A stretch of DNA of 16,633 nt from Desulfobulbaceae bacterium. GTDB lineage: Bacteria; Desulfobacterota; Desulfobulbia; Desulfobulbales; Desulfocapsaceae. The stretch covers positions 1 through 16,633 of the forward strand of contig JAUVON010000025.1 in the NCBI GenBank assembly GCA_030599175.1, written 5' to 3'. Below are positions 1,912 to 13,855 of the stretch, in pieces; position 1 is the first letter of the stretch; every line of letters starts with the position of its first letter. The position numbers were made by a program, and so were the translations under genes. The notes below the pieces were generated by a model. The model had not been told where the DNA came from, did no database searches, and worked only from the letters and a program-made list of their open reading frames with translations.

Positions 1912-3087
1912 ATGATTGAAAAAGTGTTTAAAGGAAACTCTCGCTACTGGATGTGGCTCGCATTTCTGAGCGCGTTCGTTGGAGTCGGAGCGATCTGTTA
2001 TATCAGACAATATCTCTTTGGCCTCGGATTGACCGGTATGGGGCGTGATCTGTCCTGGGGACTGTATATTTCTCAGTTTACCTTTCTCGTTGGTGTTGCC
2101 GCGGGAGGGTTGATGCTCGTTCTTCCATACTATATTCATAATTACAAGGTATTTGGCCGTCTTACTATTCTTGGTGAGTTTCTGGCCATTTCAGCGATCA
2201 TTATGTGCCTTATGTTCATTATGGCTGATATTGGCCAGCCGTTGCGTGGCTTGAACATGATGCTGCATCCGACCCCGAACTCCATGTTGTTTTGGGATAT
2301 GGTTGTATTGCTTGGGTATCTTGGGCTCAATGTTATCTGTGCCTGGGTTATTCTTACGGCAGAGCGTAAACAGGTCAAACCACCTAAATGGGTCTATTTC
2401 TTTGTTTATCTTTCAATTCCCTTTGCAGTTTCAATTCATACTGTAACGGCAATGCTCTATTGTGGTCTGCCCGGGCGTCATTTCTGGCTCTCCGCGATTA
2501 CTGCACCCAGGTTTCTGGCGTCCGCTTTTGCCGCCGGTCCTGCACTGATCGTTATTGCATGTCTTGTCATGAAGCGGGTGGCCAATTTTGATGCAGGGAA
2601 AGAGGCTATCAGCAAATTGACCACTATTATTATGTATGCTGCTCTCATAAATGCATTTTTTGTACTGCTGGAATTCTTCGTTGGATATTATTCCAATATT
2701 CCCGGGCATAAGCATTCCCTTGAATATCTTTTCTTTGGGCTTGAGCATCATGGTGTTGTGTATAATAACCTTGTACCGTTTATGTGGACATCTGTAATGC
2801 TCTGCTTTGGTGGGCTTGGTCTCTTTGCTTATATGAAAATCAGAAAGGTCGGCACCGACCTGATGGTTGGGATTGGTTGCGGCATGATTTTTTTCGCTCT
2901 GTGGCTTGATAAGGGACTTGGCTTTGTGCTGGGTGGACTGGTTGTCAGCCCGCTTCATGAAATTGTCGAGTATTATCCGACTGCGAATGAGATTGGAATT
3001 ACAGTTGGTATCTGGGCTACCGGATTTCTGCTTGTAACTTTAATGTACAAGATTGCAGTGGATGTTGAACATGAGGTAGAAGCATAG
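1912..3087 (+). CDS. dsrP: DsrP, NrfD/PsrC-family quinone-interacting membrane subunit
   Basis: A 391-residue, very hydrophobic protein in which about ten membrane spans can be picked out, from WLAFLSAFVGVGAICYI near the N-terminus to the last span around 365-385. This fits the NrfD/PsrC/HybB family, which exchanges electrons between menaquinone and a periplasmic iron-sulfur partner, here DsrO. GAGG stands 5 bases before the ATG, and the gene starts 7 bases after the dsrO stop, so it belongs to the same transcript. It is the last dsr gene in the run: a strong terminator follows 28 bases after its stop. dsrC is not adjacent. Confidence 0.95.
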   Translation: MIEKVFKGNSRYWMWLAFLSAFVGVGAICYIRQYLFGLGLTGMGRDLSWGLYISQFTFLVGVAAGGLMLVLPYYIHNYKVFGRLTILGEFLAISAIIMCLMFIMADIGQPLRGLNMMLHPTPNSMLFWDMVVLLGYLGLNVICAWVILTAERKQVKPPKWVYFFVYLSIPFAVSIHTVTAMLYCGLPGRHFWLSAITAPRFLASAFAAGPALIVIACLVMKRVANFDAGKEAISKLTTIIMYAALINAFFVLLEFFVGYYSNIPGHKHSLEYLFFGLEHHGVVYNNLVPFMWTSVMLCFGGLGLFAYMKIRKVGTDLMVGIGCGMIFFALWLDKGLGFVLGGLVVSPLHEIVEYYPTANEIGITVGIWATGFLLVTLMYKIAVDVEHEVEA

Positions 3088-3114
3088 ATTATTCTCTGTA
3101 AATATTGTAATTTG

Positions 3115-3147
3115 AAAGCCTCCGACTTGTCGGGGGCTTTTTTTTTT
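3115..3147 (+). terminator. Intrinsic terminator of the dsr operon
   Basis: The arms AAAGCCTCCGAC (3115-3126) and GTCGGGGGCTTT (3129-3140) form a 12-pair stem with one T-G wobble and a 2-base TT between the arms, so the innermost pairs must open. A run of ten T (3138-3147) follows. This is a textbook Rho-independent terminator just after dsrP. It also argues against any start of the next gene upstream of about 3150. Confidence 0.93.
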
Positions 3148-3207
3148 GTTAACTTGCGGGGTATAAAAACAGAGAAAGTAAATTCTAAGGTAAAACGAGA
3201 GTCGGCG

Positions 3208-3852
3208 TTGCATAAAAAACAGGTACTGATAGTATTTTATTCCTTTACCCGTCAGACAAAACTTATGCTGAATAAGTTTATTGAAGGGCTGGAAAGTGAA
3301 GGTATAGAAGTGACCATGCAGCGACTGGTTCCGGTTTCACCTTATGAGTTCCCGTTCAAGTCCTATGGCGGATTGATAAAAGCGACAATTGAGACGTTTT
3401 TTCAGATAAGATCTGAAATTAAATCGATAGATGAAAAGTGTTACGGGAATTGGGACAGAGTGATTATTGGCGGACCTACATGGTCGTATCATCCAAGCGG
3501 CCCTGTGCTTGAATTTTTAGACCGGTACGGTAGGGATGTATGTGCTGGTCAGCATGTGATCCCGTTTATATCATGCAGGGCGTATTGGCGTGTCCATAAC
3601 TGGGGGCTTCACCGACGGCTTAAAAAATGTGGCGCAGGAGTGGTAGAAGATCCCATTGTATTTACTCATCTCATACGTGAACCGTGGCGAACTATTGGTC
3701 TGATTATGCAGATGCGGGGGAAAATGGTACGTAAAGAAGAGAATTCATGGTTTCGGAAAAGATACCCGGGATATGGGCATAACAGGGAGCAGCGGACTGT
3801 TGCCTTGGAGAAGGGGAGACAACTTGCCCGGGAATTGCTTGACAGCCCTTAG
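3208..3852 (+). CDS. Flavodoxin-family protein, probable FMN-binding oxidoreductase
   Basis: The frame is open from before the dsr terminator, but those codons would be translated terminator. The best start is TTG at 3208 with GAGAG at 3197-3201, giving 214 residues. TTG at 3154 is the alternative. The N-terminus (QVLIVFYSFTRQTK, residues 5-18) resembles the first strand and phosphate loop of flavodoxins. IIGGPTWSYHPSGPVLEFL around residues 87-104 resembles the flavin-side loop of flavodoxin and NAD(P)H:quinone oxidoreductase families. The rest is charged and lacks membrane segments, so a soluble cytoplasmic protein is expected. It could serve as a low-potential carrier or flavin reductase, but no substrate can be inferred. 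It is separated from dsr by the terminator and converges with pilD. Confidence 0.75.
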   Translation: MHKKQVLIVFYSFTRQTKLMLNKFIEGLESEGIEVTMQRLVPVSPYEFPFKSYGGLIKATIETFFQIRSEIKSIDEKCYGNWDRVIIGGPTWSYHPSGPVLEFLDRYGRDVCAGQHVIPFISCRAYWRVHNWGLHRRLKKCGAGVVEDPIVFTHLIREPWRTIGLIMQMRGKMVRKEENSWFRKRYPGYGHNREQRTVALEKGRQLARELLDSP

Positions 3853-4686: not shown

Positions 4687-4759
4687 GTCCTGAGCCTGGT
4701 AGATAAGCCTAGTTACCTGGGCAGTTAAAACAATAATTACATCAAGTGTATCGCTAACT

Positions 4760-5548
4760 ATGTCACAATACCAGGAAAAAGCAACCGTATCACGTGTTGA
4801 GCAATTATCGGCGAAAAACTATCGTTTAACTCTTGATTCCCCTGGTATCGCCGGGGCTGCCAAAGCTGGTCAGTTTGTCATGATTCGCACCGGACTAGCC
4901 AAAGACCCTCTATTGAGACGTCCGTTTTCAATTCATCAGACAAGCGCCAATGGCCACCTCCAGATCTATTTTAAAGTGGTTGGTCGAGGAACTGATATGC
5001 TTGCACGTGTAAAGGCAGGGGAGATAGTGTCGATTTTTGGGCCACTGGGTAGAGGGTTCCAGATAAATAAAAATTCTCCTGCAATAATCATCGGTGGTGG
5101 ACTGGGGATAGCTCCAATGCTCTTTCTTGCCAAGAGTATCTGTCGACTGAAAACTGATTGCAGTAATGACCATATTATCCTTGGGGGCAGGGAAAGATCA
5201 GAGGTAGAACCGCTTGTTAATGATTTCAAGCAGTTCGGTTTGAAGCTGGGTTTAGCAACGGATGATGGATCGTATGGACATCAGGGATATGTGACAGATC
5301 TTCTGAAATCTCTTGAACTGCATTCTGGATGTACCGTCTATGCCTGTGGTCCAGAGCCGATGATGGCCCGGGTCTATAGCATTAGCAAGTCCGGCGGCAT
5401 GCAATGTCAGGTGTCGGTTGAAAGTGTCATGGCGTGCGGTATGGGAGCCTGTCTTGGATGTAGCAGGATGACAAAGAAAGGAACTTATACCCATGTATGT
5501 CTTAATGGTCCTGTCTTCAATGCGGAGGAACTGATATGGAATTCATAG
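4760..5548 (+). CDS. pyrK: PyrK, electron-transfer subunit of dihydroorotate dehydrogenase B
   Basis: A 262-residue flavo-iron-sulfur protein that moves electrons from PyrD to NAD+ during pyrimidine synthesis. The FAD site is LLRRPFSI (51-58), followed by a ferredoxin-reductase fold with GGGLGIAPM (112-120) and ACGPEPMM (195-202). The C-terminal [2Fe-2S] ligands are Cys226, Cys231, Cys234 and Cys247 (ACGMGACLGC then HVCLNGP), the PyrK pattern. Length is normal. The last 13 bases overlap pyrD, which indicates coupled, roughly equal production of the subunits. No strong Shine-Dalgarno sequence precedes the ATG. Confidence 0.95.
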   Translation: MSQYQEKATVSRVEQLSAKNYRLTLDSPGIAGAAKAGQFVMIRTGLAKDPLLRRPFSIHQTSANGHLQIYFKVVGRGTDMLARVKAGEIVSIFGPLGRGFQINKNSPAIIIGGGLGIAPMLFLAKSICRLKTDCSNDHIILGGRERSEVEPLVNDFKQFGLKLGLATDDGSYGHQGYVTDLLKSLELHSGCTVYACGPEPMMARVYSISKSGGMQCQVSVESVMACGMGACLGCSRMTKKGTYTHVCLNGPVFNAEELIWNS

Positions 5549-10216: not shown

Positions 10217-11173
10217 TTATGGGTAAACTGTATTCAACCGGTCAAGAAAATCATCGAGCATTGAGGCTGGCATGCTGTTAATGCCGGCAGCTGCCGCTCT
10301 TCCTCCACCTGTTGGGAAAAGCTTGCAAAGAGTGTCTGCATCACGACGGTCAGCCAGAGGTGCGCGCAGGCTGACTCTGAGAGTGAGATCCTCATTTTCA
10401 ACAATGAGAGCATGGGCTGCCATGGTTTCTTCACGAGCCTTCAAGTTAGAAAAGACACCCTGAATTCTGCGGGCCCAGGGAGCATTTGGAAAGAGATAGA
10501 CTCTGTTTTTTCCATTGACTGGGTACTCTTTTTGGTCCAGTGCCATTGCAAGGTCATCCTTATAGCCTTTTCGTAGGGTGCTGAGGATCGGGGAGGAAGT
10601 GAAGAACTCAAAAGGATCCTGAAAGTCATGTACTGCTCTGTACAGTTCCTCCGGGTGAAAGTGGAGATCTGCAACGGTGGATCCGTAGCCGTTATAATTG
10701 AATAGTTCTCCCATTTCCTGCAACTGCTGTGTCTGGAGTACGGTTAAGCCCGACTTATCTGCCAGTTTTTGTGCCTGTTGGTGCAGGTTGTCTCCAAAGG
10801 CTCCACAGATTGCCCATTGGCTGTTTCTCCCGCCTGATAAATTGTTGACAATGAGCGAAGTGCAGGTTTCAGGTGATACATCGATATTATATTGGAGGAG
10901 AGGTGAGTCAGGTATATTGCCGGCGAAATGATGGTCAAAATATTCAACCGAGTTATTATTGGCCAATAACGTATCCAGGAAATACCGATTGGAGTCCAGG
11001 GAGATATCAAATACACTGAAAGAACAGTTTTTCTTGTCAGCTACACGGGACAGTAAGGTAATGTCTCTTTTTACCCCGGTGATCAATGATGCTGACGGTT
11101 GGGGCTTTTCCAGGCGTAACTGGTGGAGAGCAAAAATGCCGTCGGCATCGCCGTTAAAAATATCAAAGTGCAT
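10217..11173 (-). CDS. DHH-family phosphoesterase
   Basis: A 318-residue cytoplasmic protein with the metal-binding signatures of the DHH superfamily (RecJ, exopolyphosphatase, nanoRNase and cyclic-dinucleotide phosphodiesterases). FNGDADGIFALHQLRL (6-21) supplies Asp9 and Asp11, FDIS supplies Asp56, YFDHHFAG supplies Asp80-His81-His82, and GAFGDN is a further motif. The C-terminal GGGRAAAAGINSM resembles the substrate-binding DHHA1 glycine loop. It is too short for RecJ. The real substrate cannot be told from sequence; short RNA, a cyclic dinucleotide or another phosphoester all remain possible. It lies 34 bases after the end of the lptD frame and upstream of mltB, within an envelope cluster. 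Confidence 0.85.
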   Translation of the reverse strand: MHFDIFNGDADGIFALHQLRLEKPQPSASLITGVKRDITLLSRVADKKNCSFSVFDISLDSNRYFLDTLLANNNSVEYFDHHFAGNIPDSPLLQYNIDVSPETCTSLIVNNLSGGRNSQWAICGAFGDNLHQQAQKLADKSGLTVLQTQQLQEMGELFNYNGYGSTVADLHFHPEELYRAVHDFQDPFEFFTSSPILSTLRKGYKDDLAMALDQKEYPVNGKNRVYLFPNAPWARRIQGVFSNLKAREETMAAHALIVENEDLTLRVSLRAPLADRRDADTLCKLFPTGGGRAAAAGINSMPASMLDDFLDRLNTVYP

Positions 11174-11207: not shown

Positions 11208-11669
11208 TTAATATTTAAACCCTATTGATTTGCCGATATTCGCCAGATCGAACAGGACAAGAAAAGTTGTGTCATATGGTGTATACAGGGCTTCAAGTCT
11301 CATTGACCAGCAGAGTGCCTGGTAGGTTAGTGAAGCAATAGCTTCGTCTGTCTGATCGAATTCGATTGAGTGTTTTACCCCGGCTCCTACAATCCAGCTG
11401 TTGAAGATTCGTGTTCTGATTCGGGCGTTGATCTGTTTAATTTCATCTTCCGGCCTGTAGCTGTAATCTAGGCTGAAATAGTCTCCTCTGCTATTGGTAT
11501 ATTCACTTTCAAGGATATGGCTGGCAAAACCGTTGTCATAGACATCATAGTAGCTTTTATAAGAGAGATTTGATCTTCTTGTTGGTCTCCAGCCCAGTTG
11601 AGTATAAATGTCTGAGAATGGCTCATCAGATTCTTCGCCGCGCAGGTCATACAATTGATCGATTTTCAG
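11208..11669 (-). CDS. lptD: LptD C-terminal part, separated from the rest by an in-frame TAA
   Basis: This is the direct continuation of the lptD frame after the TAA at 11670-11672. Read from the codon after the stop it gives 153 residues beginning LKIDQLYDLRGEE. The only alternative start is TTG at 11654, which has no Shine-Dalgarno sequence. It contains alternating beta-barrel strands (YFSLDYSYRPEDEIKQINARI) and a cysteine in YQALCWSMRLEA, where LptD proteins carry the barrel-side cysteine of an interdomain disulfide. It ends with an aromatic residue (SIGFKY), as outer-membrane barrels do. There is no further stop or frameshift. On its own it lacks a signal peptide and could not insert. 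See the matching entry for the N-terminal part. Confidence 0.82.
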   Translation of the reverse strand: MKIDQLYDLRGEESDEPFSDIYTQLGWRPTRRSNLSYKSYYDVYDNGFASHILESEYTNSRGDYFSLDYSYRPEDEIKQINARIRTRIFNSWIVGAGVKHSIEFDQTDEAIASLTYQALCWSMRLEALYTPYDTTFLVLFDLANIGKSIGFKY

Positions 11670-13529
11670 TTATGCATATTCCCGCCGCCTTTCCGTGTTT
11701 TTTTTGCCGTAGGAGAAGGTGTTTAAGAAGTTGTCAATACCGTAGGAAATGAAGTTCATATTGTCGATGGTATCAATATCATCAAAATCGGGCAAGTCGT
11801 CCTGGTCAACATCCTGAATATAGCCATATTTTATGAAAGGACGAAACTGGTGAGCGCTGTTTCGAAGAGTCTGTCCGGTGGAGAAGAAGTCTCTTTCCAT
11901 GGTCGTGGCAACTTCCATCTCAAATTCTGTAAGAAAACGATTCTGGCTGTCATCTCTGTCCCATTTTGAATCACCATAGTTTTGTATCGCGTAAAAAGTA
12001 TCTCGAAAGCCAAGTTCTGCACGGGATTCAAGATATGGGCTTAGCGGGATAGGTGTGGCAATGGAAGGGCGCAGGTCGACCCGATGTCCTCCGATACCGT
12101 CTTCCCTCCAGTAGTTAACATAGTCAGCGTTCCAGTCGAAGGTGAGGAAGGTTTCTCCAAGGGGGACTGCTCCGGTGAAGTCTAAGCTGGGCAGTTTCCA
12201 TAAAGGAGTGTTGATGTCAATGGGATCACTTTCAGCTTCGCTGATGGCTAAAAAATTAGTTTCAAATGCGATACCGTCCCAACTGCGTAGCAGCTTAAAG
12301 GTGTTTTTCCTTAATGGGTCTGTTTCTGTCTGGAATCCACGACCAAACGTTTCAAGGTACTTTTCCTGATTGCTGTTAAAACCGGTGGTTCCTGACTTAA
12401 ATTCAGTCAGGTAGTCCTGGTCGGAGACAATATCTATATCAAGCCGACTATACCAGTGGTCACCGAAGATATGATCGGCTTTGCCGCGAAGCCAGTATCT
12501 GTCACTATTAGTGTGGGTGAACCCGGTATCGTCATAATAGTCAGTCTCCGAAGGATCAGAGAGCCTGTCATCCAGATAATTGGCGGAAAATATGCCTTTT
12601 TCGTTTGCCTTCTCAATATAGCGGAATTCGACACCGGGCATAAACCCTCTATTGAGGTAAAATTCAGGGAAGAACGTTGCATCAATCGATTCTGAAATGT
12701 TCCAGAAAAACGGGAGATTAAAACCAAATCCTCCGTTCTTGGAGCTGGAAAACTCAGGAAAGAGGAAGCCTGTCTGGCGGGTATTTTTTATAGGGACAAC
12801 CAGATACGGGGTATAAAAAACAGGGACATTCTTAATATTAAATTTTGCATGCTTAAGAAAAGCATATCCGCCTGGGCGAATATCAACTTCTGAACTGGAG
12901 AAACTCCAGGGCGGCACCTCACCATCTTCAATTTTACATGTGATTACCCAACCGTCTTTAATTCGATACGTATCAAACCCTGTCTTTTCAATGGATTTAC
13001 CCTCAAGATGGAGAGAGTGTTCCTTGCGGATGATCGTTGCATCTGTGAACCGACCGGTTTCGTCGGTGAGTTTTATAGAGGCTTCAGTTGCCTGGAGTTG
13101 ATCCTCTGCAGTGATTATCTGCACATTTCCTTTAGCCTTAATTGACTCCAGTTCAACATCGTAGACAATCCAGTCTGCTTTGACGGTCACTGTTGTCTGG
13201 TATACTGCTGCTGTTTTGTCTACAATTTCATCGGCCTTGATTTCAGGAGGTTCAATCTTTTCCTCCAGAAGTTCTGCCCAGGATGAAACTTCGGCTTTCT
13301 TTTCAGGTGGGTTAAGAGGTTTTAGTGCCTTTTTTTCCAGTATGACATTGCCTTTTGCGACAATAATAATAGGATTTTCATAGTTTATGACCTTGTCAGC
13401 TGAGATATTCCATTCTTCAGTTGAGAGTTCTTCAGCCCTGCTCTCCCGTGTGACACCGGTCAATATCAGCAGACAAATTACGATGAATGCGTGACAGAGG
13501 GAAAATAGTCGTGGCGGACGTGATGACAC
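11670..13529 (-). CDS. lptD: LptD, LPS-assembly outer-membrane protein, ended early by an in-frame TAA
   Basis: LptD with LptE places lipopolysaccharide in the outer leaflet of the outer membrane. The start chosen is GTG at 13529, with AAGGAG six bases upstream; it leads straight into a signal peptide (RPPRLFSL, a hydrophobic core at about 12-26, then ESRAEEL). Residues 40-190 form an LptA/OstA-like domain (KVINYENPIIIVAKGNVIL). A conserved cysteine lies in WVITCKIEDGEVPPWSF (Cys198). The barrel follows, with VPVFYTPYLVVPIKNTRQTGFLFPEF as the strongest family signature. After 619 residues the frame meets TAA, with EYA before it and LKIDQLYDL after it. The whole frame would be about 772 residues, normal for the family. 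Longer starts back to 13703 are less likely, having no comparable ribosome site. Confidence 0.88.
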   Translation of the reverse strand: MSSRPPRLFSLCHAFIVICLLILTGVTRESRAEELSTEEWNISADKVINYENPIIIVAKGNVILEKKALKPLNPPEKKAEVSSWAELLEEKIEPPEIKADEIVDKTAAVYQTTVTVKADWIVYDVELESIKAKGNVQIITAEDQLQATEASIKLTDETGRFTDATIIRKEHSLHLEGKSIEKTGFDTYRIKDGWVITCKIEDGEVPPWSFSSSEVDIRPGGYAFLKHAKFNIKNVPVFYTPYLVVPIKNTRQTGFLFPEFSSSKNGGFGFNLPFFWNISESIDATFFPEFYLNRGFMPGVEFRYIEKANEKGIFSANYLDDRLSDPSETDYYDDTGFTHTNSDRYWLRGKADHIFGDHWYSRLDIDIVSDQDYLTEFKSGTTGFNSNQEKYLETFGRGFQTETDPLRKNTFKLLRSWDGIAFETNFLAISEAESDPIDINTPLWKLPSLDFTGAVPLGETFLTFDWNADYVNYWREDGIGGHRVDLRPSIATPIPLSPYLESRAELGFRDTFYAIQNYGDSKWDRDDSQNRFLTEFEMEVATTMERDFFSTGQTLRNSAHQFRPFIKYGYIQDVDQDDLPDFDDIDTIDNMNFISYGIDNFLNTFSYGKKNTERRREYA

Positions 13530-13541
13530 AATAGACTCCTT
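13527..13541 (-). promoter_or_regulatory. Ribosome binding site and GTG start of lptD
   Basis: On the minus strand AAGGAG (13541-13536), a 6-base spacer and GTG (13529-13527) form an ideal initiation site. It sets the lptD start at GTG, immediately before the signal peptide, and shortens the longest open frame by 58 codons. Confidence 0.75.
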
Positions 13542-13652
13542 ATGAGGGATGGCGTTGGGTGGAGGAGCTGAATCCTTCAATAGAAATAAGACAAAAAAAG
13601 CCAGAATATTTCTCATTATTTTGTGGTTTGGTAGTATAATTAAGCGATAAAT

Positions 13653-13664
13653 ATGATTAATCAT
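13653..13664. promoter_or_regulatory. 12-bp palindrome upstream of lptD
   Basis: ATGATTAATCAT is a perfect palindrome about 125 bases upstream of the lptD GTG. On the minus strand a TATACT, similar to a -10 box, follows it by about 15 bases (near 13634). This is a plausible operator position, but the -35 element is poor and AT-rich palindromes arise by chance. Confidence 0.25.
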
Positions 13665-13855
13665 TAAACTTCGGAGTTTACGTTTCTCAACGGAGACTGT
13701 CAAGTTTAAAGTCGTAAACTCAGAGGGTTTATTTACTGTCTGTTTCTTATTCTCTTGGGGAGGAACGAGGGGGGGGGAGTGAATTCTAAATTGATGTTCA
13801 AGATTGTAAATCTTTTAAATAAAATTTGTATTTCGATGAAATAGGTACTAATAGT

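What the first reader, a model, noticed from the sequence alone, without database searches (positions are those of the whole stretch)
11670..11672. A single in-frame TAA splits an otherwise intact lptD
The lptD frame runs from a strong GTG start for 619 codons, meets TAA, and continues in the same frame for 153 codons to a normal C-terminus, with no other stop or frameshift. Both pieces show LptD features. Cys198 is in the first part and the barrel-side cysteine (about residue 740 of the joined frame) in the second, so the stop separates the two halves of the expected interdomain disulfide. LptD is essential in most LPS-containing bacteria, and a truncated barrel could not close. The stop falls where a Tyr codon (TAT/TAC) would fit (EYA-stop-LKIDQLYDL), one substitution away. 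Options are a read or assembly error, a recent or strain-specific nonsense mutation, LPS loss or a second lptD copy, or read-through; the base after the stop is C, a weak termination context. UAA is not the codon used for selenocysteine or pyrrolysine.
Basis: partly seen in the sequence, partly recalled or inferred. Interest (0 to 1): 0.75.

Follow-up and report, generated by a model that had tools for sequence, protein, structure and literature searches.

The report
Private stop codon in lptD
One draft genome of an uncultured bacterium shows a stop codon inside a gene needed to build its outer membrane; relatives read straight through that spot, so this is most likely a one-base assembly error or a stray mutation rather than new biology.

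Summary
lptD (minus strand, GTG at 13529, good ribosome-binding site) runs 619 codons, meets TAA at 11670-11672, and stays open for 153 more codons. Both parts match Pfam LptD. The window is one contig of a draft genome, 430 contigs, 86.8% complete. The stop is private to it: of 39 relative loci, 36 have a sense codon there, 1 a gap, 2 do not reach it, none has a stop; the nearest carry tyrosine. The gene aligns to its nearest relative without gaps, and substitutions after the stop are no more protein-changing than before it (3 of 18 versus 17 of 59). So it is an error or very recent. Read-through lacks support: no conservation, no local RNA structure, no UAA-reading tRNA among 25 matches. One lptD locus was found here and LpxC is intact. 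The truncated protein would lose about nine barrel strands and the barrel cysteine. Most likely a consensus error or captured rare variant; a true recent nonsense mutation cannot be excluded without reads.

The parts
11670..13529 (-). lptD, part before and including the in-frame stop: 619 codons from GTG
   Evidence: Pfam LptD 119.6 bits on the frame 11670-13703
11670..11672 (-). in-frame TAA, codon 620 of the lptD frame
   Evidence: 36 of 39 relative loci have a sense codon there, 1 a gap, 2 do not reach it, none a stop
11208..11669 (-). rest of the lptD frame: 153 codons and terminal TAA; C-terminal barrel strands
   Evidence: Pfam LptD 35.2 bits on 11208-11654
13536..13541 (-). AAGGAG, likely ribosome-binding site of lptD
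   Evidence: sequence upstream of the GTG
12936..12938 (-). Cys198 codon, periplasmic-side cysteine
   Evidence: Cys in 40 of 40 aligned relatives
11310..11312 (-). Cys740 codon, barrel-side cysteine, lies after the stop
   Evidence: Cys in 40 of 40 aligned relatives

Best explanation
The TAA is a single-base event private to this one assembled contig, in an lptD that is intact and under selection in its relatives. Most likely it is a consensus error of the draft assembly, or a rare strain variant that the assembler took up, and the organism itself makes a full-length LptD. Shown: the stop is present here and absent from each relative locus examined that covers the site, and the rest of the gene shows no decay. 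Inferred: that it is an error or rare variant rather than the state of the living population. No reads were available.
For: None of 39 relative loci has a stop at this column (36 sense, 1 gap, 2 not reaching it). The nearest relative (95% protein identity) and the next one (two pieces, 93% and 90%) have tyrosine. There are 78 window-specific differences where those two relatives agree: 57 synonymous, 20 missense, 1 nonsense, with no excess of missense after the stop. There are no gaps over 2322 bases. The genome is a 430-contig, 86.8% complete draft. LpxC and one LptF/LptG-type gene are intact, so LPS is presumably made. [quoted passage not shown] In E. coli at least one disulfide between non-consecutive cysteines is needed (PMC10567701, passages).
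Against: In the part of the assembly that could be compared it is not visibly error-prone: of 31 matched relative ORFs (9643 aligned residues) lptD alone has a stop inside the gene, and no match was split by a frameshift. Read depth and base calls at the site were not available. A real, very recent nonsense mutation would leave exactly the same pattern.
Confidence: 0.65

Rival explanations
1. A true, recent nonsense mutation in the sampled population or a dominant strain. LptD is truncated after 619 residues, loses the last barrel strands and the barrel cysteine, and is not functional.
For: The one-base difference, the otherwise intact gene and the low rate of other disruptions (1 of 31 matched ORFs) fit as well as an error does. 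One family relative (G028, listed 100% complete) shows no lptD by three searches although LpxC is present, so loss may be possible in this family. Only one LptF/LptG-type gene was found.
Against: LptD is found in 56 of the 58 genomes searched, the window's own included; the two without are G028 and the 72% complete G004. LpxC and one LptF/LptG-type gene are intact. A lethal or very costly change should not reach the consensus of a population (inference).
Confidence: 0.2
2. This copy is a dead duplicate or a strain's copy, and an intact lptD sits in the part of the genome that was not assembled.
For: The genome is 86.8% complete.
Against: The contig is collinear with the nearest relative's lptD locus over the whole window. 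Only one lptD was found in this genome, and each relative with a match shows one lptD, extra rows being pieces of the same gene. There is no sign of relaxed selection in the denser test.
Confidence: 0.1
3. The ribosome reads through the TAA, or the two pieces are made separately and joined in the membrane.
Against: No relative locus has the stop. The gene's own terminator is also TAA. Flanking RNA folds no better than shuffles, z 1.67 and 0.93. No UAA-reading anticodon among 25 tRNA matches. The first start codon listed for the downstream piece is a TTG 15 bases past the stop.
Confidence: 0.03

Closest known systems
LptD, LPS-assembly protein (Pfam PF04453, PF19838; solved structures such as 8h1r, 4q35)
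   Same: Both parts of the frame match the family above its cut-off. The intact relative P0001 (93% identity) matches 15 distinct PDB sequences, named LptD or LPS biosynthesis protein. An invariant cysteine lies on either side.
   Different: The frame stops at codon 620, so as written the protein lacks the C-terminal strands. In the aligned relatives only one cysteine per side is invariant, where E. coli has four cysteines (31, 173, 724, 725; PMC10567701 passages).
Single-base nonsense errors or sporadic nonsense variants in draft genomes from metagenomes (general knowledge, recalled)
   Same: One substitution, one contig, no other disruption of the gene, sense codon in the 36 of 39 relative loci that have a residue there.
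   Different: Nothing that I could see; reads were not available to prove it.

Membership tests
LptD | matches the LptD family profile | tested here: met
   PF04453 119.6 bits before and 35.2 bits after the stop, cut-off 22.4
LptD | cysteine on each side for the interdomain disulfide | tested here: met
   Cys198 and Cys740 of the joined numbering; Cys in 40 of 40 aligned relatives at both columns. They are separated by the stop. Formation of the bond was not tested.
LptD | complete C-terminal barrel in one open frame | tested here: not met
   TAA at codon 620. In the model of the relative P0001 this residue (665) lies in strand 658-673, with nine further strands after it (mean pLDDT 60.7 overall, 48-93 per ten-residue block from 661 to 810)
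Old pseudogene | relaxed selection or further disruptions | tested here: not met
   No gaps in 2322 bases; missense 17 of 59 before and 3 of 18 after the stop, p 0.37. With the 77% relative as outgroup the window branch has 9 of 39 and 4 of 10 missense, the nearest relative 16 of 42 and 0 of 12: that contrast leans toward relaxation, but numbers are small
Programmed stop read-through or recoding | stop conserved at the site in relatives | tested here: not met
   0 of 39 relative loci have a stop there (36 sense, 1 gap, 2 not reaching)
Programmed stop read-through or recoding | tRNA able to read UAA | tested here: inconclusive
   None among 25 tRNA matches, but the genome is 86.8% complete
Programmed stop read-through or recoding | RNA structure next to the stop | tested here: not met
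   z 1.67 downstream and 0.93 upstream: both fold less well than the mean shuffle

The most novel reading that the evidence does not exclude
The stop is real and fixed: an LPS-making bacterium of this family lives with a truncated, or two-piece, LptD. A family member with LpxC but no detectable lptD (G028) leaves room for this.
Probability: 0.04. Interest if true: 0.5.

Novelty: not a real feature. Interest (0 to 1): 0.1.

Why it matters
As it stands it matters mainly as a caution: a single base in a draft genome can make an essential gene look broken, and comparison with relatives resolves most of it. If the stop were real and fixed it would mean that LptD, essential in most LPS-bearing bacteria, can be lost or split in this group.

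Tried and rejected
A codon-usage scan for other single-stop splits in 53 contigs of this genome (390 kb) did not work as a yardstick. In its first form it gave 0 hits here and 1 in the control genome G006. In its second form it listed 9 places here and 7 in G006; the known lptD stop was among the 9 only because I named it, its downstream score being negative. Of the other 8 I followed one (L056, see noticed in passing); most of the rest look by eye like neighbouring genes with a start just after the stop, which I did not test. I replaced the scan by comparison of ORFs with the nearest relative.

The raw form of that comparison was full of stops in what look like shadow frames; one search keeps only the longest non-overlapping stop-to-stop ORFs of 100 residues or more. 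There 31 of 498 ORFs of the relative's sample matched at 80% or more; two rows had stops: lptD, and the ORF of the RNase G/E-like gene (named by recall), whose stop lies before its ATG. In reverse 33 of 330 matched, and 3 rows showed stops: lptD and 4703-5545 ahead of their likely starts, and 3088-3849 near its 5' end, where the start is not settled. Overlap was small: 32.8 kb at DNA level, about 16.6 kb of it the window itself.

Stops reported inside other relatives' lptD are not at this site. Those that locates (TAG in L010, TGA in L015 and twice in L017, TAA in L021) are at query positions 13 to 58, before the likely start at 59. The TAA counted for L003 and L023 do not appear in the matches, which start at residues 43 and 55. 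Codons were read in loci of 29 of the 55 other genomes with a match, plus the loci; for the rest one search lists no stops inside. At 45-50% identity the column is less certain.

A line 'Y>*' for the nearest relative comes from applying two changes of one codon singly; that frame is open.

A search for the 3' piece as a protein of its own gave 8 proteins, best 70% identity; it says nothing either way. A search with the joined frame, stop read as X, listed the best 120 of 739 proteins, all 706 residues or longer; the truncated form may be hidden in the 90% cluster of P0001. Contig ends inside lptD in two congeners (G002, G003) looked suggestive, but with contigs of about 6 to 13 kb this is expected.

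Literature: two search listings with abstract beginnings and passages of two papers (PMC7860988, 12 of 14 places; PMC10567701, 12 of 29 places). The passages of PMC7860988 said nothing on stops in lptD.

Full report
What is there. The minus-strand lptD frame starts at a GTG (13527-13529) with AAGGAG six bases upstream, runs 619 codons, meets TAA at 11670-11672 and stays open for another 153 codons to a terminal TAA at 11208-11210. Both parts match Pfam LptD above its cut-off.

Where it is. The window is the whole of contig C27 of a draft genome of 2.9 Mb in 430 contigs, 86.8% complete and 3.3% contaminated. Named relatives include Desulfobulbaceae metagenome genomes, Desulfopila and Desulforhopalus. 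The window is collinear with a 29-kb contig of the nearest relative, S3730MH12 (G005, MAXH01000181.1), at 88-95% DNA identity. Neighbours look ordinary: MltA-type and SLT_2-type proteins by Pfam, and a protein at 10217-11173 without a Pfam match. Others (sulfite-reduction membrane complex genes, PyrK, PyrD, AroA, RNase G/E) I name from recall of their sequences only. A tRNA-Arg ends the window.

Is the stop shared. No. Of 39 relative loci, some of them the same genomes from two collections, 36 have a sense codon in the column, one has an alignment gap (L018), and two (L005 and L032, the same contig) end before it; none has a stop. The nearest relative and the downstream piece of the next one (G002) both have tyrosine. 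In 40 aligned proteins, chosen from the 120 listed, the column is variable: Y 16, E 11, S 5, Q 3, T 3, F 1, D 1. A DNA search of the seven genomes of the genus found lptD in six, including this one.

Is the gene decaying. There are no gaps over 2322 bases against the nearest relative, nor in the two G002 pieces. Where G005 and G002 agree against the window there are 78 differences: 57 synonymous, 20 missense, one nonsense. The missense share is 17 of 59 before and 3 of 18 after the stop (p 0.37). With G001 as outgroup, window-branch missense is 9 of 39 before and 4 of 10 after, against 16 of 42 and 0 of 12 on the G005 branch; that leans toward slight relaxation after the stop, but it rests on few sites and a distant outgroup, and the denser comparison does not bear it out. 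About 4.5% of random single substitutions in this gene would make a stop (313 of 6948).

How often does this assembly show such breaks. In the stretch that could be compared, 31 matched relative ORFs and 9643 aligned residues, lptD is the only gene with a stop inside it, and no match was split. The sample is small, and about half of it is the window itself. So the assembly is not visibly error-prone, which is the main result against an error.

What the stop would do. In the AlphaFold model of the intact relative P0001 the residue lies in a strand (658-673) with nine strands after it (mean pLDDT 60.7, weakest at the N-terminus and at 291-500, mostly good from there to about 800). The barrel-side cysteine, invariant in 40 of 40, comes after the stop. 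In E. coli at least one disulfide between non-consecutive cysteines, which link the two domains, is required for proper function (PMC10567701, passages). The truncated product would therefore not be expected to work (inference).

Alternatives. No second lptD was found, within 86.8% completeness. LpxC is intact; one LptF/LptG-type gene is intact, where two are usual by recall. Wholesale LPS loss is therefore unlikely. Read-through has no support: not conserved, no structure, no UAA-reading tRNA among 25 matches, own terminator TAA. A tRNA-Sec exists in the genome, but it serves UGA (recalled).

Verdict. A private one-base stop in a draft assembly, most likely a consensus error or rare variant, less likely a real recent nonsense mutation. 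Reads decide.

Noticed in passing
L056 (contig C7 of the window's genome), minus strand, about 3011-3013: An in-frame TGA inside a rhodanese-like protein (CGGPT-TGA-GMSTT), where a cysteine would be expected (family and residue by recall); the genome has a tRNA-Sec over the Rfam cut-off. Looks like a selenoprotein.
   Followed up: partly
genome G028 (same family as the window's genome): Listed as 100% complete in 2 contigs, with LpxC, but no lptD by three searches, while its congener G012 has one. Could be true absence, strong divergence or an assembly gap.
   Followed up: partly
G002 and G003 lptD: In two congeners the lptD gene is cut by contig ends; G002's two pieces overlap by 24 bases of the window's gene. 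Expected from contig size.
   Followed up: partly
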